From assembly GCF_026391055.1 (NCBI RefSeq), contig NZ_JAPLET010000026.1:682001-746000 (forward strand): a stretch of DNA of 64,000 bases, given 5' to 3'. Below are positions 1-62,892 of the stretch, in pieces. The stretch's first letter is position 1. Every line of letters begins with the position of its first letter. The notes beneath the pieces are model-generated. The model had not been told where the DNA came from, did not search any database, and worked only from the letters and a program-made list of their open reading frames with translations. Made by a program: the position numbers and the translations under genes. The DNA is from Spirosoma sp. GTDB lineage: Bacteria; Bacteroidota; Bacteroidia; Cytophagales; Spirosomataceae.

Positions 1-10
1 CAGCAACTCC

Positions 11-66
11 TCACTCCTCACTCCTCGCTCCTAGCATTACCTCCTCACTTCTCACTCCTAATACTA
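11..66. repeat. TCCTCACT/CTCGCTCCTA word repeat
   Basis: The sequence is made of drifting copies of words such as TCCTCACT, CTCGCTCCTA and TTCTCACTCCTA. It overlaps the 3' end of the MFS gene. The 10-mer CTCGCTCCTA (24-33) recurs at 42989-42998 in a similar pyrimidine-rich gap. The left end is cut by the window, so a reverse-complement arm cannot be assessed. Confidence 0.7.
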
Positions 67-1477
67 ATTTCCCCCTCGAGAAGGAAATGATCGCGCCCGT
101 CAACACCAGTCCGGCCATAACCAGGTAAGCGTAGTGCATCCCCAGCAGTTGAGCATCTGTGGCTTCGGGCGTTACGCCGTTCGCCAGCGCAAAGCGGTTC
201 CGGGTGCTGTACCAGACGGCAGCAGCCAGCGCAATACCTACTACAAACCCCAGGTTGCGCATAAAGGCAATCATACTGCTGGCAATGCCCCGCTGATCCA
301 GTGGAGCCGCGTTCAGCGCACTACTACTGTTTGGCGACTGAAACAGGCCGAAACCCAAACTCACCAGCGAACTCCGCCAGACGACATCTTTCCAGTCCCA
401 ACTGGTGTCCAGAAACGAAAAAGCAAAATAACCGGTGGCCGTTATCAGCAGTCCGAAGCTCGACAGCCAGCGCGTACTAACCCGGCTGGACAGATAACCG
501 CCCAGCGGAGCCACCACACTTAAGGTCAGAGGACCGGCTAGCAGCACAAGCCCAGCCTGCTCTGGATTCAATTTGAGAAGTTGCTGCAGAAAGAACGGAA
601 TCACGAACAGGTTGCCGCCAGAAGCCAGAAACCCGCAGAAAGCGGCCAAAATAGCCATGGTAAATGGCCGGATTCGGAACAAACTAAGCCGCAACATAGG
701 CTCTTTGACGCGCATCTCCCAAAAGAGGAATGAAACGAGTAAAACCGAACCAACAGAAAGTAGACCAATGACCAGTGGGTTGTCCCAGCCATAGCGAGGC
801 TCCGGCCCGAATTCAATGGCCGTTAGCAAGGTAGTTACACCAACCAGAAATAACCCCGCTCCTACCAGATCGAAACGCTGACCCGTCACTTTAGGGCTTT
901 CGGGCAAGATGGTCCAGGCTCGCCAGATGGCCAGCAAGCCAATCGGTACGTTCACGAAAAAGATACTCGACCAGCCGAATTTTCCCAGTAAAAGCCCACC
1001 AATAACGGGGCCGGCGCTGGAACCGGCCGCCACCACGGAACCCATCAATCCCATAGCCTGCCCCCGCTCTTTAGACGAGAACGCATCGCTGATAATGGCC
1101 GGGCCAATGGCATAAATCATAGCGGCACCCAGTCCCTGTACAACGCGAAATCCCACCAGCGACCACAAATTCCAGGCTAGCCCGCAAAGTAAAGACCCCA
1201 GCACAAATACAAAAAACCCAGTAATGTACATCTGTCGGCGGCCAATCCAGTCCGATAGCTTACCCATGATGAGTAAGGTGCTGGTTGTGGTAAGCAGGTA
1301 ACAAAGGACAATCCATTCGACACTATCCCCGGCGTCCAATTCCCGGCGAATGGTCGGCAGGGCGATGTTGACAATACTGCTATCGAGGGTGGACATGAAC
1401 GTGCCGAACATGACCGTCCCCAAAATGATCCATTTATTGGGCGACGACGTACTGGCCGAAATAGGTGATGCTGACAC
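11..1477 (-). CDS. MFS drug/multidrug exporter, DHA2 (EmrB/QacA) type
   Basis: The 488-residue protein is a very hydrophobic permease that should export drugs or metabolites across the inner membrane using the proton gradient. The first membrane segment carries the family-typical run around FMSTLDSSIVNIALPTI, followed by the GKLSDWIGRRQ loop between helices 2 and 3 and the AGPVIGGLL motif of helix 5; the length fits the 14-helix DHA2 group. No partner membrane-fusion gene is adjacent. The C-terminus is odd: it ends in a tandem LGxRSEE repeat encoded by the repetitive intergenic sequence at 11-66, so the tail appears to be repeat DNA read as protein. The substrate cannot be predicted. Confidence 0.9.
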   Translation of the reverse strand: MSASPISASTSSPNKWIILGTVMFGTFMSTLDSSIVNIALPTIRRELDAGDSVEWIVLCYLLTTTSTLLIMGKLSDWIGRRQMYITGFFVFVLGSLLCGLAWNLWSLVGFRVVQGLGAAMIYAIGPAIISDAFSSKERGQAMGLMGSVVAAGSSAGPVIGGLLLGKFGWSSIFFVNVPIGLLAIWRAWTILPESPKVTGQRFDLVGAGLFLVGVTTLLTAIEFGPEPRYGWDNPLVIGLLSVGSVLLVSFLFWEMRVKEPMLRLSLFRIRPFTMAILAAFCGFLASGGNLFVIPFFLQQLLKLNPEQAGLVLLAGPLTLSVVAPLGGYLSSRVSTRWLSSFGLLITATGYFAFSFLDTSWDWKDVVWRSSLVSLGFGLFQSPNSSSALNAAPLDQRGIASSMIAFMRNLGFVVGIALAAAVWYSTRNRFALANGVTPEATDAQLLGMHYAYLVMAGLVLTGAIISFSRGKLVLGVRSEEVMLGARSEE

Positions 1478-1640
1478 TGAGAAATCAGGTTAATTCTGAA
1501 ACCTAACTGGCTACATAAGCCGGTTGTTCAGCAGAGTGAAACGATACTTAGGCCAAAAATAGCCATTCGCTTATCAAATGGCTGTCGATTTATTATCTTA
1601 CTACGTTCATTCTCCAAGCTAACTCTCATTCGACAACCTG

Positions 1641-2780
1641 ATGAAAACATCTCGACGAAGTTTTTTACGAAAGACCAGCCGCAACAGCTTAGCCCTCCTC
1701 TCCACCGGCGGACTTACCGCTACATCACTTGAACAGGTATCACCATTTACCGACCAATCAGTCAAAACGGCAACCGCAATAAAACCAGATCATGTGGTTC
1801 GTTCGTTACCCGAAAATATGGTTTGGGGTTATTTCGGTGCCGATGTACCAACAGTTTATAAGGTAAAGGACGGCGATGTTGTCGAAATTCAGACCGTCAA
1901 CCCGTCGGGGGTTAGTCGGACCAATCCCGAAGAATTTTATACCAAAAATAACCTGCCCCTCGACCAGCATGCTCAGGAAGTGATTGCCATTATGAAAAAC
2001 GTAAAGCCCGAGCCATCGGGCATTCGCGGGCATATGCTGACGGGACCCGTTTACATTGACGGGGCACAACCCGGCGACACGCTCGAAATTCGTATTCTTG
2101 ATTTGACGTTTCCGGCTGGCTTTGGCGTTAACAGCGTCTGGCCGGGCGGGGGTGGCATTCCCGACGAAGTCAAAACCCGCGAAACGTTTGTGTATCGGTA
2201 TGATGCAAAGCGAAAGATGGCTACCCTTAAAGAAGGTGTCGAAATTCCATTAAAGCCGTTTATGGGAGTTATGGCCCTGTCGCCCCCGGCCGACATGGGG
2301 CGGCAGAGTTCGATTCCACCTAATTTTTTTGGTGGCAATCTGGATATTAAACACTTAACCAAAGGCACAACCTTGTTTCTGCCCGTATCCGTACCCGGAG
2401 GTTTGTTCACCACCGGCGATGGTCACGGTGCGCAGGGCAACGGCGAGGTAAGTGGTGTTGCCATCGAGACGGCCATCAACCTGACTGTCAAATTTATCGT
2501 TCACAAGGGTAAAGCATCGAAGCAGCCCCGTGCCGAAACACCCACGCACTTCATAGCAGTTGGCTTGGACAAAGACCTGAACAAAGCGATGAAAAACGCC
2601 CTCTCCGAAGCCTGTGCCTTCATTCGGGATGAGCTTGGCTTTACCTTCAATGAAGCCCTGTCCATTGCCAGCACTGCCGTCGACTTTGAAGTCAGTCAGG
2701 TGGTCGACCAGACGCTGGGCGTTCATGCCATGATTCCCAAATCCATTTTCACGAAGAAGAAATTTTCGTTCTGGGCGTAA
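1641..2780 (+). CDS. Acetamidase/formamidase family protein, exported
   Basis: The 379-residue protein matches the FmdA/AmdA family, which hydrolyses short amides such as formamide or acetamide to ammonia and the acid. Supporting stretches are the early HVVRSLPENMVWGYFG segment, the central GPVYIDGAQPGDTLEIRI segment typical of the family, and the GGNLDIKHLTKGTTLFLPV and GDGHGAQGNGEVSG segments. The N-terminus (MKTSRRSFLRKTSRNS followed by a hydrophobic stretch) is a twin-arginine signal, so the enzyme probably works in the periplasm. It stands alone, with a quasi-palindromic gap downstream. Family is well supported; the amide substrate is not known. Confidence 0.9.
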   Translation: MKTSRRSFLRKTSRNSLALLSTGGLTATSLEQVSPFTDQSVKTATAIKPDHVVRSLPENMVWGYFGADVPTVYKVKDGDVVEIQTVNPSGVSRTNPEEFYTKNNLPLDQHAQEVIAIMKNVKPEPSGIRGHMLTGPVYIDGAQPGDTLEIRILDLTFPAGFGVNSVWPGGGGIPDEVKTRETFVYRYDAKRKMATLKEGVEIPLKPFMGVMALSPPADMGRQSSIPPNFFGGNLDIKHLTKGTTLFLPVSVPGGLFTTGDGHGAQGNGEVSGVAIETAINLTVKFIVHKGKASKQPRAETPTHFIAVGLDKDLNKAMKNALSEACAFIRDELGFTFNEALSIASTAVDFEVSQVVDQTLGVHAMIPKSIFTKKKFSFWA

Positions 2781-2786
2781 GTACTA

Positions 2787-2850
2787 AGCAACGAGACAGA
2801 AACAACACAGCAATACACGGTAAAGTCTGTGTTCTTTCTGTCTCATTGTT
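2787..2850. repeat. Intergenic quasi-palindrome, GAGACAGAAA words
   Basis: The arms 2787-2810 and 2827-2850 are reverse complements at 21 of 24 positions around a 16-nt loop. The word GAGACAGAAA is central to both. No T-tract follows, so it is not a standard intrinsic terminator, although it may end transcription of the amidase gene. Confidence 0.75.
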
Positions 2851-2871
2851 CATGCGTAACAACCAGGTACG

Positions 2872-2890
2872 TATATTTGAATTCTGCAAC
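2872..2890 (+). promoter_or_regulatory. Candidate promoter/operator of the AraC gene
   Basis: TATATTTG at 2872-2879 fits the Bacteroidota -7 consensus TAnnTTTG, with TTG at 2847-2849 at a plausible -33 distance. It overlaps a 16-mer, ATTTGAATTCTGCAAC (2875-2890), that is repeated with one change at 3839-3854 ahead of the next gene. Promoter function is inferred. Confidence 0.5.
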
Positions 2891-2900
2891 CGCTCTTCGC

Positions 2901-3830
2901 ATGAACACGACCACCATCGACCAGTTTTATCAGCAGCTTATCAGTAATGCTGGCACCGACGTGCGTGAACTTCTGCCCGATGGAATCAACCGGGAGATTG
3001 GGCACTTTAATGTGTTCAGCATGGTGGAGCTGACCAAACGACTTCAGAAAAACCCAGCCATGCCCTATAACCGGAGGGCTTATTATAAGATCAGTCTGAT
3101 CAGCGGCCGGAACCGTGCCGAATACGCCGATAAGGTGATCGACATCGAAAAAAATGCCCTTCTCTTTGCCACGCCGAAAGTCCCCTACCATTATCTGCCG
3201 CAGGACGCGGACCAGACCGGGCACTTCTGCGTCTTTACCGACGAGTTTTTGATACAGAGTAAAAGTGGCGTAGTGCTCGATGATCTGCCCATTTTCAGGC
3301 CCGGTGGATACCCTGTATTTCAGCTTACCGACGAGGATGCAAACAATATAGGGTATATTTTCCGAAAGATGGAAAAGGAACTGGCATCCAATTATGCCTA
3401 TAAATATGACCTGCTGCGTAATTATGTGCTGGAGTTGATCCATTATGGGCAAAAGCTCCAGCCCGCCATGTCGCTCTATCCAACGCATACCGCTTCGGCC
3501 CGTGTTTCTTCCCTCTTTATTGAGTTGCTGGAACGGCAGTTTCCTATTGAATCGCCACAGCAAAAGCTGGGCCTGCGAACAGCCAAGGATTATGCCGACC
3601 GGCTGTCTGTCCACGTCAATCACCTCAACAAGGTACTGAAAGAAAATACCGGCAAAACCACCACCGATATCATCAGCAGCCGGATTGTTCAGGAAGCCAA
3701 GATCCTGCTGAAACAGACCGACTGGAATGTATCGGAGATTGCCTATAGCCTGGGGTTTGAAGAGGTTGCACACTTTTCGAACTTCTTCAGGAAACAAACC
3801 TCCCTGTCGCCGGTAGCCTTTCGGGCGTAA
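2901..3830 (+). CDS. AraC family transcriptional regulator
   Basis: This 309-residue protein has an N-terminal sensing region that resembles a cupin-type ligand domain and a C-terminal AraC double helix-turn-helix. The HTH is clear in the last 90 residues, with TAKDYADRLSVHVNHLNKVL for the first half and the conserved WNVSEIAYSLGFEEVAHFSNFF plus a final SPVAFR for the second. The ATG at 2901 is preferred over an upstream in-frame start at 2829, which would put 24 unconserved residues ahead of the domain and place coding sequence inside the quasi-palindrome and promoter. The next gene is an SDR whose leader shares a 16-mer with this gene's leader, which suggests the regulator controls both. 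Confidence 0.92.
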   Translation: MNTTTIDQFYQQLISNAGTDVRELLPDGINREIGHFNVFSMVELTKRLQKNPAMPYNRRAYYKISLISGRNRAEYADKVIDIEKNALLFATPKVPYHYLPQDADQTGHFCVFTDEFLIQSKSGVVLDDLPIFRPGGYPVFQLTDEDANNIGYIFRKMEKELASNYAYKYDLLRNYVLELIHYGQKLQPAMSLYPTHTASARVSSLFIELLERQFPIESPQQKLGLRTAKDYADRLSVHVNHLNKVLKENTGKTTTDIISSRIVQEAKILLKQTDWNVSEIAYSLGFEEVAHFSNFFRKQTSLSPVAFRA

Positions 3831-3838
3831 CAGGTCTG

Positions 3839-3876
3839 ATTTGAATTTTGCAACGATCGGATTGATGTTTGCAAAC
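3839..3876 (+). promoter_or_regulatory. Repeated 16-mer plus GTTTGCAAAC palindrome before the SDR
   Basis: ATTTGAATTTTGCAAC (3839-3854) matches 15 of 16 bases of the element just upstream of the AraC gene. It is followed by a perfect 10-bp palindrome GTTTGCAAAC (3867-3876). Both sit in the short gap between the regulator and the SDR and could be operator sites for the AraC protein. Confidence 0.4.
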
Positions 3877-3931
3877 AGCTCATCCCTTTCTCGCTCGACC
3901 TTTGTTCCATCAAAATGATTACAGACAACTG

Positions 3932-4702
3932 ATGGAAAACACAGCACACACAAAAATTGCCCTGGTTACCGGTGGAAGCCGGGGGCTGGGAAAAAATATG
4001 GCCCTGAGCCTGGCAACGAAAGGAATCGATGTTGTTCTCACCTACCACAGTCGGCAGGAGGAAGCACAGGCCGTAGTCGCTGAGATTGAACAGATGGGGC
4101 AAAAAGCCGCTGCCCTCCAACTGAATGCGGGCGATGTAAAAAGCTTCGACACGTTTTTCAGCCAATTGACCAGCGTACTCTCAACTACGTTTGGCACCAG
4201 CCATTTCGATTTCCTGATCAACAACGCCGGTATTGCCGGACGTACGCCCATTGCCGAAACAACGGAGGATGTTTTTGACGAACTCATGAACATTCACCTG
4301 AAAGGCGTTTTCTTCCTGACGCAGCAATCGCTGCCGTTGCTCAACGATGGGGGCCGCATCATCAACATCTCAACGGGTCTGACTCGCTTTACCACGCCCG
4401 GCACGGCTGTTTATGCGACCATGAAAGGAGGCATCGAAACGCTGACCATGTACCTGGCGAAGGAACTAGGCGGCCGGGGTATTGCCGTCAACACCGTAGC
4501 GCCGGGCGCCATCGAAACGGATTTTGGCGGAGGCACGGTTCGGGACAATCCTGGCGTAAACAAGCATATTGCTGGGGTCACCGCCCTGGGTCGCGTTGGT
4601 CTCCCCGATGATATCGGCGGTGTGGTGGCCTTTCTGTGCACCGACGAAGCCCGCTGGATAAATGCACAGCGCATTGAAGTATCGGGCGGTATGAACTTAT
4701 AA
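3932..4702 (+). CDS. Short-chain dehydrogenase/reductase (SDR)
   Basis: A classical SDR of 256 residues that reduces or oxidises an alcohol/ketone with NAD(P)H in the cytoplasm. The dinucleotide motif TGGSRGLG is near residue 12, the structural NNAG motif near residue 90, and the catalytic YxxxK (YATMK) near residue 158, preceded by a conserved Ser in the NISTG segment. The Rossmann fold is complete and ends with the usual IEVSGGMNL. The ATG at 3932 starts right before the nucleotide-binding strand; a TTG at 3869 would add 21 residues and is less likely. The gene probably forms a regulatory pair with the AraC gene upstream, a common arrangement for AraC-controlled SDRs. Substrate unknown. Confidence 0.9.
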   Translation: MENTAHTKIALVTGGSRGLGKNMALSLATKGIDVVLTYHSRQEEAQAVVAEIEQMGQKAAALQLNAGDVKSFDTFFSQLTSVLSTTFGTSHFDFLINNAGIAGRTPIAETTEDVFDELMNIHLKGVFFLTQQSLPLLNDGGRIINISTGLTRFTTPGTAVYATMKGGIETLTMYLAKELGGRGIAVNTVAPGAIETDFGGGTVRDNPGVNKHIAGVTALGRVGLPDDIGGVVAFLCTDEARWINAQRIEVSGGMNL

Positions 4703-4709
4703 GAAAACG

Positions 4710-4760
4710 GATTTGCCCCAACTCCATCTCGATAGAACAGACAAGAAGTTGGGGCAAATC
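4710..4760. terminator. Hairpin between convergent genes
   Basis: GATTTGCCCCAACT (4710-4723) and AGTTGGGGCAAATC (4747-4760) are perfect 14-bp reverse complements. The stem lies between the SDR and the convergent lipoprotein gene, so it can terminate both. The loop of 23 nt is long and the T-tract is weak. Confidence 0.65.
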
Positions 4761-4791
4761 TATAAGGCAGTCGACCGGAACAGCTCGGGAC

Positions 4792-5226
4792 CTACTTCGC
4801 TGTTACCTGCACCACGTATGTACGGACTGGCTGCCCGTTTCCGGATGCGGTCATGGGTCTGGTCGAGAACGTAACGTTGGCCGCTCCTACGGTAACACCT
4901 TTTATCTGAAAAACTGTTGGACCAGTGTTGATGTGATTGACCGTATCAACGGCGGGAGCCAGTTGCCGCCGGGAAACCTCTACCACTTCCTGATTATCGG
5001 AGGTTCCGATCAACTCCGACCCGGCCTCACCCCGGTTAGGTAGCGAAACTTCCTTGATCTCCCCCACCGACACCTTCAGTCGTTTTTTTGCACCCACATC
5101 CGACTGGCCGGAATGGCTACAGGAGAAAGCGGTAAACAGAAGAGCCAGAAGAGCTAGCTGTTTTACAGCCGTTTTGCCCTTAATTGGCCACTGAAATGGC
5201 GTCTGAGTCGTATGCGTGGTTGTCAT
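4792..5226 (-). CDS. Small predicted lipoprotein, possibly inhibitor-like
   Basis: The product is about 144 residues from the ATG at 5226 (an upstream in-frame ATG at 5244 adds six). A hydrophobic segment ending in LFTAFSC gives a lipoprotein signal with the modified Cys, so the mature protein should be anchored on the outside of a membrane. The mature part is all-beta in appearance, with KVSVGEIKEVSLP at the start, VFQIKGVTVGAANVTFSTRP in the middle and a final YVVQVTAK strand. This layout resembles chagasin-type (I42) protease inhibitors or an Ig-like module, but the NPTTGY loop of chagasin is absent. Function is therefore unassigned. It stands alone, convergent with the SDR gene. Confidence 0.6.
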   Translation of the reverse strand: MTTTHTTQTPFQWPIKGKTAVKQLALLALLFTAFSCSHSGQSDVGAKKRLKVSVGEIKEVSLPNRGEAGSELIGTSDNQEVVEVSRRQLAPAVDTVNHINTGPTVFQIKGVTVGAANVTFSTRPMTASGNGQPVRTYVVQVTAK

Positions 5227-5381
5227 AGCCACTATAACTCGCAAGCCTTACCAGCGGTTTTAAATTAAACCATATAGCAGGCACAATTTCAGTTCTTCAA
5301 TTGGTTCCAGGCAGTCATCCCGGCTATCTCAAATCATCTGCAACCAATACGACTGAATAGGCTCTTCGATTTTCACCTTTC

Positions 5382-7049
5382 TTACCTGGCTTTGCGCTGA
5401 TAAAAGACAAAGCCATTTTCCTCTCCCGTTTTCTTTACATCGGGGAGCGAGTCGAGCAGGGTTGGCTCTTCGCTGGCTTTGCGGATAAACAGCACATCTT
5501 TATCGACTCGGCCGCGCAGCAGCCACTCGTCGTTATAATAGTTTTTATTGGTAACGGGCGGTTTCTGGGTGTAAAAGTAGGGACCGTAACTATGGTAGCC
5601 GTACGTTCTCACATATACGTCCTGCCCTTTGGCCCGCTCAAAAAAGCGCATGGCTGCATCCTGCGAAATACCTTCGATCCGGCCAATAAAAAACCAAAGT
5701 GTGAGGGTGATAAAGATGGCCATTCCACCAAAGAGTGTTACGGCAGCCCGTCCGGTTTCGCGCTGGTTAAACAAGATGAATGTCAAAACCAGAATTATCA
5801 ACAGCCATATCCCCGGTAGTACCTCCCAGCCGGTCCAGTTAACGTTTGCGTTCAGGTTACCTTGTGTGAAGGCGTCCTTATCGGCATAGGATTTCACGAT
5901 ATCCATATGATGGGCCAGTATGGGAAGCCCTATAATAGCCACCACATAAATGCCGCCTATGATGATCAGGCCAGCCCGCATCCAGTTGTTAAACTGAATT
6001 TTTCGCTCTTCCAGTTGCGACAGCGTCAGGGCCGCGAAGTAAGTCAGCGGGAAGTAGCACAGCGACGAGTAATGTACAATTTTGGACTGCACAATACTGA
6101 ACAGCACCAGCACCACCCAGAACAGAATCAGCATCCATTTGCGAAATTCACGCTGGTAATTTCGTTCGATGAACAACGAGCCAAAAGCTCGAACGCCAAA
6201 TATAGAGGCCGGAAAGCAGCCAACCAGTAAGATAATGATGTGGTAGGCCGGAAAGCCTACATGACCAGCATCGGGCGTACTGAACAACCGAAAGTTATAG
6301 GCCAGGAACTTTTGCACCAGCGCCGGTCCGTGCAGGTAAATATCGAGTCCGTACCACATCAGCGACACAAACGAAGCCGCTATCGAAAACGCCACAAATT
6401 GAAGTGGTGAGATAAACCATCGAAAGCGGCTCAGCATCCAGTACACCAGCAGCACCAGGCAAACAATCAGGTAAGCAACAGGCCCTTTAGTTAGTATGCC
6501 CAGCCCCAGCACAAAGCCGCCCAGCAAAAGATAGACCCACTCCGGTTTGGGTACAGTCATGGCCCCACCCAGCCGTTCGCGCTTCCAGGAAGCAAAAATC
6601 AGGTTGACCAGCCCGACGAAGATGAACAAATTAAAAAACGGGTCGATGATGCCGGACCTGAAATATAGATGGGGCGTTACTGATCCCAGGTAAGCAAGCG
6701 CCCACAGCCAGCCGAAGCGATGACCGTGTAATTTCTGGCCAAGATTATAGAGATAAACCAGCGTGATAATCCCGCAGATAGCGTTCGGCAGCCGGGCCGC
6801 AAACTCGCCGACACCGAACAGGTTCATCATGGCCGACTGAAGCCAGAAAAACAAAGGTGGCTTTTCGTAGAACGGCTTAAAATCTATGTGAACATGCAGG
6901 TAATCGCCGAGCGCGATCATTTCGCGGGCGCATTCAGCAAAGTTTATTTCGTCCCAGTCGAATAGGCGGACGCCCCCCAGAAACGGGATAAACAGCAAGG
7001 CCCCTACAACGACCAGTACCAACGAATAAAAGAGTTTTTGATTCATCAA
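5382..7049 (-). CDS. ArnT/PMT-like GT-C glycosyltransferase, integral membrane
   Basis: The 555-residue protein has about ten or more membrane helices and a C-terminal soluble part. It fits the dolichyl-phosphate-mannose mannosyltransferase/ArnT superfamily, which moves a sugar from a polyprenyl-phosphate donor to a lipid or protein on the outer face of the inner membrane. The first periplasmic loop carries the expected acidic motif (FDWDEINFAECAREM, residues about 30-45), followed by KPFYEKPPLFFWLQS, also typical. The family is confident. Whether the acceptor is lipid A, another lipid or protein cannot be told. It is divergent from pgi across a gap that holds a quasi-palindrome. Confidence 0.85.
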   Translation of the reverse strand: MMNQKLFYSLVLVVVGALLFIPFLGGVRLFDWDEINFAECAREMIALGDYLHVHIDFKPFYEKPPLFFWLQSAMMNLFGVGEFAARLPNAICGIITLVYLYNLGQKLHGHRFGWLWALAYLGSVTPHLYFRSGIIDPFFNLFIFVGLVNLIFASWKRERLGGAMTVPKPEWVYLLLGGFVLGLGILTKGPVAYLIVCLVLLVYWMLSRFRWFISPLQFVAFSIAASFVSLMWYGLDIYLHGPALVQKFLAYNFRLFSTPDAGHVGFPAYHIIILLVGCFPASIFGVRAFGSLFIERNYQREFRKWMLILFWVVLVLFSIVQSKIVHYSSLCYFPLTYFAALTLSQLEERKIQFNNWMRAGLIIIGGIYVVAIIGLPILAHHMDIVKSYADKDAFTQGNLNANVNWTGWEVLPGIWLLIILVLTFILFNQRETGRAAVTLFGGMAIFITLTLWFFIGRIEGISQDAAMRFFERAKGQDVYVRTYGYHSYGPYFYTQKPPVTNKNYYNDEWLLRGRVDKDVLFIRKASEEPTLLDSLPDVKKTGEENGFVFYQRKAR

Positions 7050-7170
7050 GCCACGTAATAATATGCGTAAAGTAATCTTTCCCGTAGGAAAAGAAGCGTA
7101 AAAATAGAGGAAAAAAGATTGCCGGGATTGCCGATATTCGCGCCGATAAGTTAAACAGGCAACAGTAATT

Positions 7171-7326
7171 AGTTTACAGTATTCGGTTTTCGGTTTTAAG
7201 TGGACTAACTCCTGATTTTTGTCTGGTTTGCAGGTTCCTTAACCCATTGGCACGTGCGTTTGTCATGTCAATCTTTAGGCCTGCGTCCTCACCGCCCTTA
7301 GAACCGAGAACCAAAACCAGTAAACT
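7171..7326. repeat. Quasi-palindrome between divergent genes, AACCGAAAACC words
   Basis: The arm 7171-7200 (AGTTTAC, then CGGTTTT twice, then TAAG) is the reverse complement of 7297-7326 at 24 of 30 positions. The arms are 96 nt apart. The element occupies most of the gap between the divergent glycosyltransferase and pgi genes, so it cannot be a terminator for either; it must overlap the promoter or leader region of pgi. Confidence 0.7.
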
Positions 7327-7328
7327 AA

Positions 7329-9020
<1,692 letters not shown>

Positions 9021-9118
9021 GCTTAGCAACTTCCTGACACTGATTGCTATTCTGACTGAGATATTAAATTTTTTGAAAAATTGGAATAGTTCTAAACATT
9101 GTCTGATAACCGCCTGTT

Positions 9119-9151
9119 AAAGGGGTGTAATCTCGATTACGCCCTTTTTTT
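9119..9151 (+). terminator. Intrinsic terminator of pgi
   Basis: AAAGGGGTGTAAT, a 4-nt loop, then ATTACGCCC followed by seven T. One G-T pair in the stem. The position about 100 nt after the pgi stop and before the next ATG fits a rho-independent terminator. Confidence 0.85.
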
Positions 9152-9179
9152 GTCTAACTCAACGTATAAAACAAACGTC

Positions 9180-10100
9180 ATGAAACGTCAATTCTCCATT
9201 CTGGCAGTCTGCCTATGTGGTATCGGCATCGCGAATGCCCAAACTACAACCAACACGTACTCCACAACCAGTACTGCAACGAATCCAACGTACACCTCGC
9301 CGGTGACAACGGACAGCACGAATTCGATGAGCAATAGCTCAAATTCGATGAACAACAGTTCGAACTCGATGAGCAACAGCAACTCGACCACGAACAACGG
9401 CTCAATGAGCAACAGCGCTACAACGCCAAACAGCACCTATTCGACCAACAGTGCCCCTTCAACTGACGGCACTACCACAACTACGACGACTTACAGCACA
9501 ACGGATAGCCCGGATCGTGTGAAAGCAACGAAAGATTACAAAAACTTTGTTTTCGGTATTTACGCTGGTCTTAACTCAACGAAGTTAAAAGGTGAGTCGA
9601 CTGGCGGTGATATTTCGGGTCGTATCGGTTATCAGGCCGGTTTCTTTGTACGGGGTGGTGGCCGTTTATTCGGTCAGTTGGGTGCTGAGTATTTTGCGTC
9701 CAGCTCGAACTATTTCACCCGTGGTGATGGTGCAACGCCTTCGCAGATTCAGGATCAGATCAACATCCAGTACGTACAGATCCCGGTTTACATCGGTTAT
9801 AGACTGCTTGAATCGGATCGTGGTATTTCGGCAATCCGTTTGCAGGTGGGTCTTGAGTATGCCAACCGGATTAACTCAAGCAGCGGTAATTTCAACCTGA
9901 CGAACTCAGAGATCAAAAGCGGTACATTCAACGGTCTTGGCCAACTTGGCTTCGATATCGGTCCCCTGCTTATCGACCTGACCTACCACTATGGTTTGAG
10001 TGATTCGATCAAGAATCCAACGAACAACTCAACCATATCGACAGGTTTTGCTGGTTCAGCACGTCGTATCCTGAGCGCTAGCGTAGGCTTCAAGTTCTAA
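9180..10100 (+). CDS. Outer-membrane beta-barrel protein with Ser/Thr/Asn-rich linker
   Basis: The 306-residue product starts with a signal peptide (MKRQFSILAVCLCGIGIANAQ). A low-complexity linker of about 95 residues follows, almost all Ser, Thr and Asn, with repeated NSMSNSSNSM-type units. The C-terminal half is an outer-membrane beta-barrel domain of the PorT-like type, beginning near KDYKNFVFGIYAGLNSTK and ending with a terminal aromatic residue (ASVGFKF). The next gene is a clear paralogue in the barrel but not in the linker. The ATG at 9180 is chosen because it begins the signal peptide and lies after the pgi terminator. The linker may span the cell wall or be displayed; function is unknown. 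Confidence 0.8.
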   Translation: MKRQFSILAVCLCGIGIANAQTTTNTYSTTSTATNPTYTSPVTTDSTNSMSNSSNSMNNSSNSMSNSNSTTNNGSMSNSATTPNSTYSTNSAPSTDGTTTTTTTYSTTDSPDRVKATKDYKNFVFGIYAGLNSTKLKGESTGGDISGRIGYQAGFFVRGGGRLFGQLGAEYFASSSNYFTRGDGATPSQIQDQINIQYVQIPVYIGYRLLESDRGISAIRLQVGLEYANRINSSSGNFNLTNSEIKSGTFNGLGQLGFDIGPLLIDLTYHYGLSDSIKNPTNNSTISTGFAGSARRILSASVGFKF

Positions 10101-10122
10101 GCATTCCAGAGTTTGATAACGT

Positions 10123-10154
10123 AAAAGCCGCCTTCCGACGAGGGCGGCTTTTTT
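10123..10154 (+). terminator. Strong intrinsic terminator
   Basis: AAAAGCCGCC and GGGCGGCTTTT form a GC-rich stem with an 8-10 nt loop and a run of T. It lies 22 nt past the stop of the first barrel gene and separates it from its paralogue, so the two barrels are probably transcribed separately. Confidence 0.9.
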
Positions 10155-10330
10155 GTCGATCAGCGTCCGAAAACACCTCTCAATAAGTTTCTTTCGGCTT
10201 TTACAACAATCAGAAATAACGACCTGACTATCAGAAATCTAGCAAGACCAGGGCAACTAATCATCCCTCACTCTTACAAACATTACCGACGGTGGACGGT
10301 TGTATTCTTAAATACTCAACTTGATAAGTT

Positions 10331-11221
10331 ATGAAAACGTTAACGAAATCGATCCTGCTTGCGGCAGGTATGTGCAGCACCAGTCTGGTGTTTGGTCAGC
10401 AGAACTCGTACAATGACCGGTACAATCAATATGATCGGTACGACCGGCCATCTCGTCGGGATGAGCGCCGGGACGACCGCCGTCTGGATGACCGCCTGGA
10501 TGAACGGCGTGAATATAACCGGCGTGAGCAGGAAGAGCCACGATACAACAACCGTTATGAAGACCGGCGGGGTGATAGCCGGATGTATGACGAGCGCGAC
10601 TTAAGCAAAGCTTACGACGAAGGATTTGATGACGGTATGCGCAACCAGGTTGTCAGTGAGCGCCAAGAACATCGTGAGAACTACAAACACTTTACGTTTG
10701 GCGTCTATGGCGGGGCCAATTCAACCCGTTTTGAAGGAGAAACTGTAAATGGCGAAGGGTTGACGGGCCGCCTGGGATACCAGTTAGGCTTCCTTGTACG
10801 GGGCGGTGGCCGGGTTTACGGACAGGTTGGCGCGGAATATCTGGCATCCAGCTCGCAGTTTTTTAAGGCTGGTGATGGTCAGGTAACCGGTGTTAGTGAT
10901 ATTACGGGAAACATTGACCAGCGCTACCTGCACATTCCGGCTTATATCGGGGTGAAGTTGGCGCAGTCGGAACGGGGCGTGTCGGGCATTCGGCTGGCCC
11001 TTGGTGCGGAATACGCTACCCCGCTAAGTACCGATAAAAACGATTTCAATCTGGGCAATGCCGATTTCCAGGCGGCAACCATTAACGGACTGGCCAACCT
11101 TGGTTTCGACGCGGGTCCGATCATGCTCGATTTCGTTTACCACTATGGTTTTGCCGACGTGCTGACCAGCGGTAACAGCAAGCGCCGGATTCTGGGCGTG
11201 AACCTCGGGTTCAAGTTTTAA
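10331..11221 (+). CDS. Outer-membrane beta-barrel protein with Asp/Arg/Tyr-rich linker
   Basis: This 296-residue protein is a paralogue of the preceding gene: both barrels share the KDYKNFVFGIYAGLNST / ENYKHFTFGVYGGANST opening, the GRIGYQAGFFVRGGGRLFGQ / GRLGYQLGFLVRGGGRVYGQ strands and the final aromatic residue. The signal peptide (ending VFGQQ) is followed by about 95 residues dominated by Asp, Arg, Tyr, Asn and Glu, such as repeated DERRDDRRLDDRLDERR units, in place of the Ser/Thr/Asn linker of its neighbour. That region would be highly charged and disordered. The two genes have separate terminator and leader regions. Function unknown; a structural or envelope-sensing role is only a guess. 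Confidence 0.8.
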   Translation: MKTLTKSILLAAGMCSTSLVFGQQNSYNDRYNQYDRYDRPSRRDERRDDRRLDDRLDERREYNRREQEEPRYNNRYEDRRGDSRMYDERDLSKAYDEGFDDGMRNQVVSERQEHRENYKHFTFGVYGGANSTRFEGETVNGEGLTGRLGYQLGFLVRGGGRVYGQVGAEYLASSSQFFKAGDGQVTGVSDITGNIDQRYLHIPAYIGVKLAQSERGVSGIRLALGAEYATPLSTDKNDFNLGNADFQAATINGLANLGFDAGPIMLDFVYHYGFADVLTSGNSKRRILGVNLGFKF

Positions 11222-11233
11222 CTTGATAAGTCA

Positions 11234-11330
11234 GTAAGTTGCCGAGTGGTAAGTGAACAAGTAGTAAGTTTGTCAATAGATAAATTACTACCTGTTCACT
11301 TACCACTTGTTATTTGTTCACTTACCACTC
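11234..11330. repeat. Quasi-palindrome, one forward and two reverse 15-mers
   Basis: AGTGGTAAGTGAACA occurs once (11235-11249), and its exact reverse complement TGTTCACTTACCACT occurs twice (11293-11307 and 11315-11329). The inner GTAGTAAGTTT and AAATTACTAC also pair. The last copy ends 7 nt before the next start codon. Confidence 0.85.
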
Positions 11331-11336
11331 CTGTCT

Positions 11337-11903: not shown

Positions 11904-11909
11904 CTATAG

Positions 11910-12470: not shown

Positions 12471-12479
12471 ATAAGCGGG

Positions 12480-12815: not shown

Positions 12816-12849
12816 AGCTAACTCATACCGTACCGAAACCTAATACCTC

Positions 12850-13437: not shown

Positions 13438-13487
13438 ATACGTAAAGATACAGGGTGATTGGCAAATTTTGATGATCTATCGCGGTT

Positions 13488-13528
13488 AAAACAAAAAGCT
13501 GCTCCAACCTGAAGCAGCTTTTTGTTTT
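13488..13528 (-). terminator. Intrinsic terminator after the LysM gene
   Basis: AAAACAAAAAGCTGCT and AGCAGCTTTTTGTTTT are perfect 16-nt reverse complements around a 9-nt loop, with A- and T-runs on each side so that it can work in both directions. It lies just past the LysM gene stop on the minus strand. Confidence 0.92.
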
Positions 13529-13545
13529 GAGGCAATAACGCGTTA

Positions 13546-15957: not shown

Positions 15958-15971
15958 TGTTATCCGTAAAA

Positions 15972-18041: not shown

Positions 18042-18068
18042 GTTCCTCGTTAAAGAGCGCTTTCAACA

Positions 18069-23177: not shown

Positions 23178-23239
23178 AGCGTTGCCAATGGTAACCAACG
23201 GCTAAAGTAAGGGGCAATTTTGGAAAGATTTGGGATTTG

Positions 23240-23304
23240 GTGGAGTGCGTGAAAGTAAGTAAAAGTGGTGGAGTAAGTTGTTCCACCACTTTCACCTACT
23301 CCAC
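23240..23304. repeat. Quasi-palindrome, GTGGAGT/GTGAAAGT words
   Basis: GTGGAGT, GTGAAAGT and GTGGTGGA on the left pair with TCCACCACTTTCACCTACTCCAC on the right. It fills the gap between the MerR gene stop and the response-regulator leader; its right end abuts the MerR stop codon. Confidence 0.75.
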
Positions 23305-24068
23305 TAAAGCCTTTCCGCAAAATACACCATGGCTTTGTTCAAAAAAGCTGCGTATTCCGGATTAGTCTGACCATTCCGGATTGTGTACCGCGGGTCATCA
23401 ATATACAGTTGCGCCAACCCTTTATAAGCGTCGGCCATGTTTCGACTCTGGCAGACCGACTCGCCCCAGAAGCTCCGAATATTGGCGTAATGCCGGGCAA
23501 TCTGCTGTTGCACAGCCTCACTGGTTGGACTCAGATGTAACATTGCCGCCAGTGCCTGAGCAATTTCCTGCTGATCGGCCTTTAGTTTGGTAAAGTCGGG
23601 GGCGCCCATTCTGCGCAGTTTTTCCTCTGACTCCTCTACAACCTGATTGCCGTATTTTTCAATGGCCTCTTTTCTATACACATCCCCTTTTGGAAAACCT
23701 TTGTATAATTCTTCGTTGGTTAACATGACTCGTTCTCCTTTTAAAGTTAAAATCGTTTTGTCAATCGTTACGAGTAGTGTTTCGAGTCGTTTCTGTCTGG
23801 ATTTTAGCGCCTGTTTATGGCTTTCCAGGGCGTTCAGTACATTGAAATCCGGCCCATCCAGCACCGCTCGAATTTCGGTCAGTGAAAAGTCCAGTTCCTT
23901 ATAAAAAAGAATCTGCTGTAGTCGGATCAACTCTTTATCGCCATACAACCGGTACCTGGCCTCGGTACGGATGGACGGCTTCAACAAGCCCAGGCGATCA
24001 TAATGGTGCAGCGTGCGCACACTGACACCGGCTAATTTCGCCAGTTTCTTTACTGAATATTCCCGCAT
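23304..24068 (-). CDS. MerR family regulator with TipAS domain
   Basis: The 254-residue protein has an N-terminal MerR winged helix (YSVKKLAKLAGVSVRTLHHYDRLGLLKPS, residues about 4-32), a dimerisation coiled coil at about 75-110, and a C-terminal TipAS domain at about 120-254, recognised by the helix-rich WGESVCQSRNMADAYKGLAQLYIDDPRYTI stretch. TipAS domains bind hydrophobic peptides or antibiotics, so this protein probably switches on genes in response to a small molecule. Its target is unknown; the two-component genes downstream are on the same strand but separated by a repeat. Confidence 0.93.
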   Translation of the reverse strand: MREYSVKKLAKLAGVSVRTLHHYDRLGLLKPSIRTEARYRLYGDKELIRLQQILFYKELDFSLTEIRAVLDGPDFNVLNALESHKQALKSRQKRLETLLVTIDKTILTLKGERVMLTNEELYKGFPKGDVYRKEAIEKYGNQVVEESEEKLRRMGAPDFTKLKADQQEIAQALAAMLHLSPTSEAVQQQIARHYANIRSFWGESVCQSRNMADAYKGLAQLYIDDPRYTIRNGQTNPEYAAFLNKAMVYFAERL

Positions 24069-31562: not shown

Positions 31563-31631
31563 CTGGTTATTGAGTTACCGGGTTATTAACACCCATTAAC
31601 CCAATAAGTCAGTAACTATTAACTCAATAAC
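31563..31631. repeat. Quasi-palindrome before the adaptor gene
   Basis: GTTATTGAGTTA (31566-31577) pairs exactly with TAACTCAATAAC (31620-31631), with a second inner pair of GGGTTATT and ATTAACCC-type words. It ends 3 nt before the adaptor start codon, inside the efflux operon. Confidence 0.8.
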
Positions 31632-34586: not shown

Positions 34587-34724
34587 GTAGTGGGTAAAGT
34601 AAGGGGAGTAGTTGAGTAAGAGAAGTAAGGGGTAACCAATGGAGCTAGTGTTTTCAGAGACACAAACCACTTACTTCACTTACTCAACTACTTCACTATT
34701 CCACTTACTTCACTAATCACCTAC
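34587..34724. repeat. Large quasi-palindrome between convergent genes, AGTAAGT words
   Basis: GGAGTAGTTGAGTAAGAGAAGTAAG on the left pairs with CTTACTTCACTTACTCAACTACT (34670-34692) on the right, and further GTAGTGGGTAAAGTAAG-type words pair with CCACTTACTTCACTAATCACCTAC. The right part reaches the stop codon of the convergent SDR gene. A terminator role is possible here. Confidence 0.85.
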
Positions 34725-42954: not shown

Positions 42955-43020
42955 AACAGACACTCATGAGGACTAGTGCCCTCGTCTTCTCGCTCCTAAG
43001 TCCTCGCTTCTAACTCCTTC
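42955..43020. repeat. CTCGCTCCTA word repeat between SDR copies
   Basis: The words CTCGTCTTCT, CTCGCTCCTA, GTCCTCGCTTCTAACTCC recur with drift, and GAGGACTAG (42968-42976) is nearly the reverse complement of CTAAGTCCTC. CTCGCTCCTA is shared with 24-33 of the window. It ends 5 nt before the second SDR start. Confidence 0.75.
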
Positions 43021-45913: not shown

Positions 45914-45970
45914 CCTCATGACAAGCAGAACGCCACTCCGGACTGGAGTGGCGTTCTGCTTGTCATGAGG
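45914..45970. terminator. Perfect 26-bp palindrome between hpf and metK
   Basis: The 26-nt arm 45914-45939 (CCTCATGACAAGC...) and arm 45945-45970 are perfect reverse complements around a 5-nt loop. There is no T-tract on either side. The position between convergent genes suggests a two-way terminator, but the length and perfection are unusual for a terminator. Confidence 0.85.
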
Positions 45971-52110: not shown

Positions 52111-52150
52111 AGTCGGTAAGTCTTTTTAGTCAGTAAGTTGGTAAGCGGCT
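52111..52150. repeat. AGTCAGTAAGTTGGTAAGCGGCT element
   Basis: The 33-nt part 52118-52150 matches 54092-54124 at 29 of 33 positions. It precedes the lipA stop on the plus strand orientation and does not show a reverse arm here. The shared sequence marks it as a member of the same dispersed element. Confidence 0.75.
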
Positions 52151-54091: not shown

Positions 54092-54185
54092 AAGTCTTTT
54101 TAGTCGGTAAGTCAATAAGCGGCTTACTGACTTATTAACTTAGGCGAAGCCGCTTACTGACTTATTGACTAACTAACTGACTAAA
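54092..54185. repeat. AAGCGGCTTACTGACTTATT quasi-palindrome before OsmC
   Basis: AAGTCAATAAGCGGCTT (54109-54125) and AAGCCGCTTACTGACTT (54147-54163) are reverse complements at 16 of 17. CTTACTGACTTATT occurs twice (54123-54136, 54153-54166). The first 33 nt match 52118-52150. It lies between divergent genes and ends 5 nt before the OsmC start. Confidence 0.85.
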
Positions 54186-61695: not shown

Positions 61696-61768
61696 GAAAG
61701 ACTGAAAGAGCGAAAGAGCGGAAAACTGGCACAAGCAATTTTCGCTCCTTCGCTCTTTCAGTCTTTTC
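61696..61768. repeat. Quasi-palindrome, GAAAGACTGAAAGAGCGAA words
   Basis: AAAGACTGAAAGAGCGAA (within 61696-61714) is the perfect 18-nt reverse complement of TTCGCTCTTTCAGTCTTT (61749-61766), with extra AGAGCG and CGCTCC words inside. It lies after SusD and before the TIM-barrel gene. Confidence 0.85.
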
Positions 61769-61883
61769 TATCAGTAGAAGTAGGGCTATACAAGCTTATT
61801 TTATCACTTCTTTATATCAAAAACTTTCATTCACAATCAGTTTATAGGCCATCGGCTACCACTGATTATTGACCCTTACGATT

Positions 61884-62810
61884 ATGCTGGAGACGGTAAA
61901 CCGACGGCAGTTTCTTACCACGGCCGGCGTGTCGGCCCTAACTTTACTGGTTGGTGCAAATCGATTATCTGCCGGTATAGCCAAACCCTCCGGCCTAAAA
62001 ATCGCCTACTCGGCTATCACCTGGGGAGGTAACGATGCCCAGGCTATTGCCGACCTATCGGCAATGGGCTACCGGGGCATTCAATTGCGGGCCAATGCCT
62101 TTGGGCCTTACAAAGCCAAACCCTCGGAATTAAAAGCCCTGCTCGACCAGCACCACCTCGCGCTGGCCATGTTTTCGAGTGGGAACGTCGAGATTGACCC
62201 GGCCAAAGAACAGAGCACCATCGACATGCACGTGGCTCATGCCAGTTTTGTAAAAGCACTGGGAGGCTCGGCTATTCAATTGACCAACTCTGCCCGCCCC
62301 AAAGATCGACTGCCAACGACCGAAGAGTTGAAAAGACTCGCTGCCGTCATGAACGAAATCGGTAAACAAACCGCCGACCTGGGCGTGCAGGCCACCTATC
62401 ACAACCACATGCACCAACTGGGCGAAACACCCGAAGAAGTAGATGTGATCATTCAGGCGATGAACCCTAAGTTCGTAAAGCTGGAACTCGACATTGCTCA
62501 TTACAAGCAAGGCGGTGGCGAGCCCGAGAAAGCCGTGAAGCAATATAAAGACATTATCTATGCACTTCACCTGAAAGACACCATGTCGCCCCTGCCCGAT
62601 AAACCGGATAACCCTAAGGCATACAAGTTTGTCGAACTGGGACGGGGTAACGTAAACGTCCCGGCTGTATTTAAAGCGCTGGAGGAAATCAAGTTCAAAG
62701 GATGGGGCATTATTGAATTGGACGGCGTACCCGAAAAAGACAAGACAGCTGCGCAGTGTGCTCAGATCAATAAAGATTACATTACAAAAACGTTAAACTT
62801 CCCGCTTTGA
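61884..62810 (+). CDS. Sugar isomerase/epimerase-like TIM barrel, TAT-exported
   Basis: The 308-residue protein starts MLETVNRRQFLTTAGVSALTL, a twin-arginine signal, so it is folded before export to the periplasm. The rest is a TIM barrel of the xylose-isomerase/AP-endonuclease 2 group, with metal ligands suggested by ATYHNHMHQLGE near residue 173, KLELDIAHYKQGG near 203, ALHLKDT near 232 and WGIIELDGVPE near 278. Some relatives act as hydratases or epimerases on 3-keto sugars, which fits the DUF1080 gene just downstream. The exact reaction is not known. Confidence 0.88.
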   Translation: MLETVNRRQFLTTAGVSALTLLVGANRLSAGIAKPSGLKIAYSAITWGGNDAQAIADLSAMGYRGIQLRANAFGPYKAKPSELKALLDQHHLALAMFSSGNVEIDPAKEQSTIDMHVAHASFVKALGGSAIQLTNSARPKDRLPTTEELKRLAAVMNEIGKQTADLGVQATYHNHMHQLGETPEEVDVIIQAMNPKFVKLELDIAHYKQGGGEPEKAVKQYKDIIYALHLKDTMSPLPDKPDNPKAYKFVELGRGNVNVPAVFKALEEIKFKGWGIIELDGVPEKDKTAAQCAQINKDYITKTLNFPL

Positions 62811-62819
62811 GTCTCTAGG

Positions 62820-62892
62820 TTCACTCCGTGTATCTCTGTGCCATATTTTTGTTTCACAGAGATGCACGGAGATAGCACAGAGGTTCATGGAG
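62820..62892. repeat. CACAGAGATGCACGGAG repeat before DUF1080
   Basis: CTCCGTGTATCTCTGTG (62824-62840) is the reverse complement of CACAGAGATGCACGGAG (62855-62871) at 16 of 17. A direct copy CACAGAGGTTCATGGAG (62876-62892) follows at 14 of 17. The last copy ends 8 nt before the DUF1080 start codon, so the hairpin lies in the leader. Confidence 0.85.

What the first reader, a model, noticed from the sequence alone, without database searches (positions are those of the whole stretch)
1..62892. A class of intergenic 'word' quasi-palindromes, different words at each locus
At about a dozen gaps (11-66, 2787-2850, 7171-7326, 11234-11330, 21194-21231, 23240-23304, 31563-31631, 34587-34724, 42955-43020, 52111-52150, 54092-54185, 61696-61768, 62820-62892) the sequence is built from 8-17 nt words repeated with drift, most with reverse-complement copies. 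The grammar is constant but the words change: GAAAGACTG here, AGTAAGT there, CACAGAG elsewhere. They appear in every gene orientation, so terminator function does not explain all of them. They could be the product of template switching during replication, a self-templating repeat, a family of small mobile or recombinogenic elements, or RNA structures. I know of no named family with these features.
Basis: partly seen in the sequence, partly recalled or inferred. Interest (0 to 1): 0.8.

Follow-up and report, generated by a model that had tools for sequence, protein, structure and literature searches.

The report
Gene-end hairpins that rewrite themselves
In Spirosoma bacteria many gaps between genes hold long mirror-image (hairpin) sequences, some built from short repeated words; related species often keep a hairpin in the same gap but with different letters, a pattern best explained by DNA copying that folds back on itself.

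Summary
Ten of 13 listed loci hold an inverted repeat beyond all 200 shuffles (nine inside the window; for 1-66 the other arm lies to its left). One has direct repeats only; two are not above chance. The words are one end of a wider class: 103 of 444 gaps in 864 kb of this Spirosoma genome score >=14 (none expected); E. coli 1 of 41. Non-word hairpins avoid divergent gaps (1/82); word hairpins do not (4/82).

Relatives at 93, 86 and 79% DNA identity show that the hairpin slot persists while its sequence turns over: where neither arm is found in the closest relative, another hairpin is there in 15 of 19 slots (3 expected). A few spacers are inverted between species (2811-2826 in the window), one slot has a mirrored 14-nt indel, and one stem was lengthened from about 15 to 35 bp by mirroring a flank. 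This fits fold-back template switching plus word slippage, with selection for hairpins at gene ends. Against it: long-spacer inversions are few (2 of 53), a polarised cluster test was inconclusive, whole gaps turn over, and the shared word dictionary is unexplained.

The parts
1..18 (.). Right arm (CAGCAACTCCTCACTCCT) of a convergent-gap word hairpin whose left arm lies just left of the window; heptamer word array continues to about base 66
   Evidence: IR score 19 over 19 nt with arms at about -40..-22 and 0..18, shuffle maximum 10 of 200; DR period 7, score 18
2789..2848 (.). Quasi-palindrome, arms 2789-2810 / 2827-2848 (91% complementary), spacer 2811-2826, tandem gap. The spacer is inverted in the closest relative G048
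   Evidence: spacer CAATACACGGTAAAGT versus GCTTTACCGTGTATTG in G048; inverted similarity 0.88, forward 0.10, null 99.9% 0.47
7169..7328 (.). Divergent-gap word hairpin (GGTTTTCGGTTTT words), arms 7169-7200 / 7297-7328, 96-nt spacer
   Evidence: IR 17, shuffle maximum 12.5; the same gap in G048 scores 9.5 at 95% identity
11245..11330 (.). GTAAGT-word hairpin, arms 11245-11270 / 11282-11307 plus a further copy of the right arm at 11305-11330, tandem gap
   Evidence: IR 21, RNA fold -40.4 kcal/mol, z -9.0; alignable in G048 and S. fluviale
23233..23311 (.). GTAAGT/GTGGAG-word hairpin, overlapping pairings 23233-23256 / 23288-23311 and 23254-23272 / 23282-23300, tandem gap
   Evidence: G048 has a longer hairpin of the same words, S. 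fluviale an unrelated non-word palindrome
31566..31631 (.). GTTATTGAGTTA-word hairpin with alternative pairings, tandem gap after an AcrB-like gene
   Evidence: the S. fluviale gap is 28 letters (stop codon included) without it; several other species have pyrimidine-rich word arrays at this place
34602..34697 (.). GTAAGT-word hairpin in a convergent gap, arms 34602-34633 / 34666-34697
   Evidence: S. fluviale has TTAATGG words, some other species unrelated palindromes
42989..43016 (+). Single-arm heptamer word array (CTCGCTCCTAAGTC) shortly before a start codon
   Evidence: DR 11, none of 200 shuffles; G048 has both arms of a score-19.5 hairpin
45914..45970 (.). Non-word palindrome in a convergent gap, 26-nt perfect arms, 5-nt loop; 12 bp longer than in G048, whose right flank resembles the extra part; loop inverted relative to G048. 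S. fluviale has 21-nt arms, so the direction of the length change is not settled
   Evidence: loop GGACT versus AGTCC; fold -50.9 kcal/mol
54100..54172 (.). Divergent-gap word hairpin (GTCGGTAAGTCAATAAG), arms 54100-54125 / 54147-54172; further word copies to 54185
   Evidence: IR 18.5, DR 19; G048 has a hairpin of related, rearranged words, S. fluviale related words with IR 11.5
61697..61766 (.). GAAAGAG-word hairpin after a SusD-like gene, arms 61697-61724 / 61739-61766
   Evidence: IR 23; G048, S. fluviale and G024 each have their own GAAAGAG hairpin; spacer inverted between this genome and G024 (0.71 versus 0.09)
62808..62887 (.). CACAGAG-word hairpin, arms 62808-62840 / 62855-62887, tandem gap; here the 5' arm is the pyrimidine-rich one
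   Evidence: fold -44.4 kcal/mol, z -8.2

Best explanation
These are gene-boundary palindromes that are remade by fold-back template switching during DNA replication. A polymerase that meets an inverted repeat lets the new strand fold back and copies the opposite arm (or the opposite strand), then returns. One such event can correct one arm to match the other, lengthen the stem by mirroring a flank, copy an insertion or deletion from one arm into the other, or flip the spacer. Slippage between similar 7-10 nt words adds and removes words, and template switching mirrors the result, which gives repeated words in both arms. In tandem and convergent gaps selection for a hairpin at the gene's 3' end (termination or 3'-end protection) keeps the slot filled while its letters turn over. 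Shown: excess of IRs, persistence of slots with unrelated hairpins, mirrored changes rich in transversions, inverted spacers in a few slots, one mirrored indel, one stem extension polarised by two relatives. Inferred: template switching as the cause, slippage as the source of words, termination or 3'-end protection as the selected function.
For: IR >=14 in 103 of 444 gaps, 0 expected from 8 shuffles per gap. Slot persistence with replacement: hairpins of this genome with neither arm found in the partner have another hairpin there in 15 of 19 (G048, 3.0 expected) and 13 of 22 (S. fluviale, 4.4 expected); G048 hairpins against S. fluviale 13 of 18 (2.8 expected). At slot 65035 (just right of the window) this genome, S. 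fluviale and G024 hold three different words, all hairpins. Spacer inversion: 2781 (16 nt) and 65035 (13 nt) against G048, 61683 (14 nt) against G024, at similarity 0.62-0.88 with a null 99.9% of 0.47; exact inverted short loops in 5 of 97 slots with a similar core, two of them 4-5 nt (CTCA/TGAG; GGACT/AGTCC at 45902). In those 97 slots 248 pairs changed on both sides and stayed paired, 96 changed on one side; 147 of the 248 are transversions and runs reach 20 pairs, whereas G-U intermediates give transitions only. Mirrored 14-nt indel at C22:271675. Stem extension: -33800, arms of 16 nt in G048 and 15 nt in S. fluviale, 35 nt here by mirroring the left flank. Compatible but not polarised: 45902 (14 nt in G048, 26 here, but 21 in S. 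fluviale) and -42580 (12 nt in S. fluviale, 28 here, another hairpin in G048). In divergent gaps, where no terminator is needed, hairpin presence is still shared with G048 (3 both, 2 here only, 0 there only, 56 neither, p=0.0003).
Against: Long-spacer inversions are few: of 53 comparisons with G048 in two blocks (spacers 6-60 nt), 29 same orientation, 2 inverted, 22 not alignable, and the second block added none; against S. fluviale 0 of 21, G048 against S. fluviale 0 of 22. Three of the five exact inverted short loops are only 3 nt, 73 of the 97 loops differ otherwise, and the similar-core criterion is loose. A polarised test with geometry from the outgroup (35 slots) gave no special excess of pairing gains in multi-nucleotide clusters (11 gain, 16 loss) over single changes (32 gain, 51 loss); total gains 43 of 83 changes at unpaired sites, about 28 expected by my arithmetic, which compensatory selection also explains. 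Choosing slots with a hairpin in both species forces mirrored changes, so the 248:96 ratio alone is biased. Single-arm survivals are few (0 of 48 hairpins of this genome in G048, 4 of 60 the other way, 2 of 48 in S. fluviale); most turnover removes both arms. Sequence outside the arms in hairpin gaps is lost more often than the arms (17 of 42 segments versus 20 of 94 arms against G048; non-hairpin gaps 36 of 212), so turnover is not peculiar to the arms. Words shared between unlinked gaps need a further source. In divergent gaps sharing with S. fluviale is not significant (p=0.086).
Confidence: 0.54

Rival explanations
1. Ordinary intrinsic terminators evolving by point mutation and compensatory substitution under selection for RNA pairing.
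For: Non-word hairpins: 39/83 convergent, 50/285 tandem, 1/82 divergent; each of 12 folded strands is more stable than all 200 shuffles; pairing gains exceed chance.
Against: 147 of 248 mirrored changes are transversions and runs reach 20 pairs at about 92-93% genomic identity; some spacers inverted; word hairpins not depleted in divergent gaps (4/82) and only 7 of 21 carry A4 or T4 at a stem end (32 of 90 for the others).
Confidence: 0.18
2. Small mobile palindromic elements (REP-, MITE- or STRR-like families) inserting and being lost.
For: Presence/absence at 31553 (present here and in G048, 28-letter gap without it in S. fluviale); dispersed words; shared core AAACGNCATATC in 6 of 450 gaps, all with hairpins.
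Against: For ten window elements the longest other match in 864 kb is 31 nt at 94%; best other whole-genome hit to the GAAAGAG element 79% over about 70 nt; only 3 Y1-transposase loci; in five of the six core gaps the core is shared but the outer arms are locus-specific and mirrored. Target-site duplications were not tested.
Confidence: 0.12
3. Short-tract recombination between species swaps ready-made gap alleles.
For: Slot 84419: this genome and G024 share one hairpin type, G048 and S. fluviale another (gap window identity G048-S. fluviale 0.96, this genome-G048 0.64); slot -20514: this genome and S. fluviale alike (0.90), G048 different (0.54); 5 of 56 slots incongruent.
Against: The break is confined to about 100 bp with neighbouring windows at 0.89-0.96; it does not make inverted spacers or species-specific palindromes.
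Confidence: 0.1
4. Invertons: a site-specific recombinase flips the spacers as a phase switch.
For: A few spacers are found in both orientations between species; invertons are recalled, from no call, as common in Bacteroidota.
Against: The arms share no common site, the inverted spacers are 3-16 nt, and arms are remodelled too.
Confidence: 0.04

Closest known systems
Quasipalindrome-associated template-switch mutation in E. coli (abstract and passages of PMC7202029)
   Same: Imperfect inverted repeats become more perfect by copying from the nascent strand.
   Different: There a reporter hotspot in the laboratory; here inferred by comparing dozens of gaps of one genus, with slot persistence and word arrays.
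Template switching between inverted-repeat arms with spacer inversion in yeast (abstract and passages of PMC8604942)
   Same: Arm homogenisation and spacer inversion as the two outcomes.
   Different: Reported there in protein-coding genes with short spacers (passages seen); here intergenic, with inverted spacers of 3-16 nt and arms from 14 to over 40 nt.
Template switching creating and maintaining RNA hairpins (abstract and passages of PMC8794818)
   Same: Reverse-complement copies create stems and fix their pairing; the authors name loop inversion with an arm change as the strongest possible support.
   Different: In their rRNA data such cases were extremely rare; here slots 2781 and 65035 combine an inverted spacer with mirrored arm changes, though not necessarily from one event.
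Small inversions of plastid stem-loops (passages of PMC6824564)
   Same: Loop flips in stem-loops mostly downstream of genes, six of eleven where two genes meet tail to tail.
   Different: There the stem region is recognised as the same and the loop flips; here the stem sequence is often replaced as well.
TAACTGA heptamer direct repeats of Beggiatoaceae, Cyanobacteria and Bacteroidetes (abstract, two sections and passages of PMC4679880)
   Same: Intergenic 7-mer arrays near start codons, one set in reverse orientation after a stop codon.
   Different: One fixed word, nearly all direct repeats; here many words, in mirrored arms.

Membership tests
Template-switch (quasipalindrome) mutation products | Inverted-repeat arms more alike than chance | tested here: met
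Template-switch (quasipalindrome) mutation products | Spacer inversion between relatives | tested here: met
   Three slots at inverted similarity 0.62-0.88 (null 99.9% 0.47), but 2 of 53 in the wider G048 comparison; 5 of 97 exact short loops
Template-switch (quasipalindrome) mutation products | Polarised multi-nucleotide changes that raise pairing | tested here: inconclusive
   One clear case, -33800; cluster gains 11 to losses 16
Template-switch (quasipalindrome) mutation products | Events observed in a clonal lineage | not testable with these tools
   No reads held
Intrinsic terminators | Non-word hairpins at 3' ends, depleted in divergent gaps | tested here: met
   1/82 versus 89/368, p=6e-8
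Intrinsic terminators | The same for word hairpins | tested here: not met
   4/82 versus 17/368, p=1; only 21 hairpins
Intrinsic terminators | U-tract at the stem end of word hairpins | tested here: not met
   A4 or T4 at a stem end in 7 of 21 word hairpins (32 of 90 others)
REP / MITE mobile palindromes | Many near-identical dispersed copies | tested here: not met
   Ten window elements against 864 kb, one against the whole genome
REP / MITE mobile palindromes | Target-site duplication at filled versus empty sites | not tested
   No systematic test run
Described RNA families (Rfam 15) | Match at gathering score | tested here: not met
   0 matches in the window

The most novel reading that the evidence does not exclude
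In this bacterial lineage structure is inherited without sequence: a gap keeps being a palindrome over species divergence because replication itself re-mirrors whatever letters are there, so that hairpins arise, grow, flip and change words faster than the genes beside them diverge, and selection at gene ends merely chooses which slots keep one.
Probability: 0.25. Interest if true: 0.85.

Novelty: new variant of a known kind. Interest (0 to 1): 0.6.

Why it matters
It would make the question of how hairpins and terminators arise and stay paired directly testable in a free-living bacterium with many natural sites. It warns that paired changes at such sites can come from a mutation process and not only from RNA selection. 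It also suggests one cause for the elevated spacer variation in terminator inverted repeats reported across bacteria (abstract and passages of PMC13155455): some spacers flip rather than drift.

Tried and rejected
Known RNA family: none at gathering scores. REP/IS200 mobilisation: three Y1-transposase loci, no near-identical copies of the elements tested. Loss of the SbcCD hairpin nuclease as the reason palindromes persist: rejected, SbcD is present, ExoVII large subunit too; E. coli-type ExoI was not found, but it is also missing from 13 of the 14 control genomes, so it says little. Compensatory evolution through G-U pairs alone: rejected as the full account because transversions prevail. Autocorrelation as the definition of a word hairpin: kept but imperfect; 18 of 111 hairpins have p<0.05 in both arms and 28 in either, against 8 of 111 shuffled single arms, and clear word hairpins such as -23136 fail it. 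Polarised cluster test: inconclusive. Four-species pattern counts: few slots, because G024 shares little synteny (51 gaps with all of this genome, S. fluviale and G024). Slot 34585 across the genus: 30 loci; the automatic choice of reading frame failed or was wrong in 14, including this genome's own; of the 16 with a plausible frame (690 nt or more) 8 have an IR of 15 or more after the stop and 8 have none above 11.5, so the slot is not filled in every species. Loci of the second genus search were used only to place G048. The promoter/terminator scan covered 1-20000 only and is not used. Dropped before counts: gaps outside 25 or 30 to 500 bp, partner gaps over 700-800 bp, gene pairs not adjacent or not co-oriented in both species, and 21 of 118 G048 slots without a similar core. 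Gene calls come from my own codon model, which leaves out some genes, for example the patatin-like ORF at 39691.

Papers: in the listings (8, 20, 3, 20, 13, 18, 20, 20 and 20 titles shown, several capped) and (no paper), I saw no report of these hairpins in Spirosoma or its relatives; the library holds open-licence papers only, so this is weak evidence of absence.
Full report
WHAT WAS GIVEN. The window is part of a Spirosoma-like genome (G000:C11:682001-746000, 7.98 Mb); the nearest named relative by its AcrB-like protein is Spirosoma fluviale, 98% amino-acid identity. Genes were called with a codon model trained on 864 kb of the same genome. Slots outside the window are named by their distance from its first base.

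IS IT THERE. Gap by gap against 200 dinucleotide shuffles, 9 of the 13 listed loci have an inverted repeat with arms of 12 nt or more that no shuffle reaches. Locus 1-66 is a tenth: its partner arm lies just left of the window. 42955-43020 has only direct repeats here. 21194-21231 and 52111-52150 are not above chance by either score. Direct repeats alone beat all shuffles in 6 of 13.

HOW WIDE. In 444 gaps of 30-500 bp, 103 have an IR score of 14 or more where 8 shuffles per gap gave none; convergent 44/82, tandem 54/280, divergent 5/82. The same measure gives E. coli K-12 1 of 41 gaps, other Spirosoma 23 of 71, Larkinella 21 of 67, Dyadobacter 61 of 215, the Chitinophaga group 13 of 49, Fibrella/Fibrisoma 3 of 18, Runella/Siphonobacter 5 of 33, Chryseolinea 3 of 30, Mucilaginibacter 5 of 30 (small samples, around one gene for all but E. 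coli; one shuffle per gap gave 0 throughout). So the word palindromes are part of a large class of long gene-boundary hairpins, strong in several genera of this part of the Bacteroidota. Of 111 hairpins (score 12 or more, arms 14 nt or more) in 450 gaps, 21 were classed as word hairpins by autocorrelation of the arms. They are AT-richer (GC 0.37 versus 0.49), with longer loops (median 17 versus 7), and are as common in divergent gaps as elsewhere (4/82 versus 17/368, p=1), whereas non-word hairpins are nearly absent from divergent gaps (1/82 versus 89/368, p=6e-8). The 5' arm is the purine-rich one in 19 of 21 word hairpins and in 42 of 58 non-word hairpins without A4/T4 at a stem end (14 the other way, 2 even).

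WHAT RELATIVES SHOW. Orthologous gaps were compared with G048 (93% and 92% median gene identity in two blocks), S. fluviale (86%) and G024 (79%). Hairpin presence is shared with G048 beyond chance within each orientation (tandem p=6e-16, convergent p=3e-8, divergent p=3e-4), and with S. fluviale in tandem (2e-5) and convergent gaps (0.002) but not significantly in divergent ones (0.086). Yet the letters often are not shared. Against G048 (first block) 23 of 48 hairpins have both arms recognisable, 14 are intermediate and 11 have neither; against S. fluviale 13, 11 and 22 of 48, plus 2 single-arm cases. Where neither arm is found, another hairpin occupies the slot in 15 of 19 (G048, both blocks) and 13 of 22 (S. 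fluviale) cases, against 3.0 and 4.4 expected from gaps of the same orientation. Slot 65035, just right of the window, has GGAGTGAGTGAAGTG words here, GATGTATGATGTATG in S. fluviale and AATGACTAATGGATAATG-type words in G024, always as a hairpin. Slot 34585 has GTAAGT words here and in G048 and TTAATGG words in S. fluviale; across the genus 8 of 16 readable loci have a long hairpin there and 8 do not.

FOOTPRINTS OF FOLD-BACK COPYING. (a) Spacer inversion. At 2781 the 16-nt spacer CAATACACGGTAAAGT reads GCTTTACCGTGTATTG in G048, its reverse complement but for one letter; similar inversions occur at 65035 (G048) and 61683 (G024). Two weaker candidates (0.31-0.32) passed only the 99% null. In the wider G048 comparison 2 of 53 spacers are inverted, 29 are in the same orientation and 22 cannot be aligned. 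Exact reverse-complement loops of 3-5 nt occur in 5 of 97 slots with a similar core, two of them 4 nt or longer; 19 loops are identical and 73 differ otherwise. Two further slots, 101972 and -54189, look inverted by eye. (b) Mirrored change. In those 97 slots 248 pairs changed on both sides and are paired in both species, 96 changed on one side, 17 changed on both without staying paired in both; 147 of the 248 are transversions. Because slots were chosen for having a hairpin in both species the first ratio is biased; the transversions and the runs (up to 20 pairs) are not explained by G-U intermediates. (c) Mirrored indel. At C22:271675 a 14-nt stretch is present in both arms in G048 and absent from both here. 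(d) Stem extension. At -33800 G048 and S. fluviale have arms of 16 and 15 nt; here the left flank is mirrored on the right to give 35 nt. At 45902, in the window, the arms are 26 nt here, 14 in G048 and 21 in S. fluviale, so the direction is open; at -42580 they are 28 nt here, 12 in S. fluviale, and G048 has another hairpin.

RESULTS THAT DO NOT FIT EASILY. A polarised test with geometry from S. fluviale (35 slots) found pairing gains in 43 of 83 changes at unpaired sites, more than the third expected, but no special excess in multi-nucleotide clusters (11 gains, 16 losses; singles 32 and 51). Non-arm sequence in hairpin gaps is lost more often than the arms (17 of 42 versus 20 of 94 against G048; 25 of 43 versus 47 of 94 against S. 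fluviale), and non-hairpin gaps less (36 of 212; 61 of 162), so whole hairpin gaps turn over. In 5 of 56 slots the hairpin type is shared against the species order; at 84419 and -20514 the break is confined to about 100 bp. Words form a dictionary shared by unlinked gaps, although the elements themselves have no near-identical copies. None of these is explained by template switching alone.

READING. The most economical account is replication template switching acting on inverted repeats, with slippage among words, plus selection for hairpins at 3' ends. The literature gives each ingredient: correction of quasipalindromes in E. coli (PMC7202029), arm homogenisation and spacer inversion in yeast genes (PMC8604942), creation and repair of RNA stems (PMC8794818), and plastid loop flips at tail-to-tail gene ends (PMC6824564); heptamer word arrays near start codons are known from Beggiatoaceae, Cyanobacteria and a few Bacteroidetes (PMC4679880). 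Of each I saw the abstract or outline and passages, not the whole text. What seems new is the combination and its scale in one bacterial genus: slots that stay hairpins while stem, words and sometimes the spacer's direction change. Function remains inferred; the word hairpins in divergent gaps argue that termination is not the whole story.

Noticed in passing
G000 C22 and C11 blocks, six gaps: A core AAACGNC(A/G)TATC recurs in 6 of 450 gaps, each with a hairpin; in five the core lies in the best-scoring stem and the outer arms are locus-specific but mirrored.
   Followed up: partly
L067, L068, L069, L072, L092, L101, start of the gene after the AcrB-like gene: In these species pyrimidine-rich word arrays (CGCTCTTTCACTCTTTC, TCATTCAGTCATTC and the like) lie around the start of the next gene, in some apparently inside its N-terminal coding sequence.
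   Followed up: no
slots 84419 and -20514 relative to the window: Hairpin types are shared between species against the overall relatedness, with the change confined to about 100 bp.
   Followed up: partly
G048 gaps orthologous to -152026, 191274 and C22:154377: A longer palindromic element with CTGGCGCGGG...CGCGCCAG-like ends occurs in several gaps of the closest relative and not in the same gaps here.
   Followed up: no
word and non-word hairpins, 864 kb: The 5' arm is purine-rich in most hairpins, a handedness without a tested cause.
   Followed up: partly
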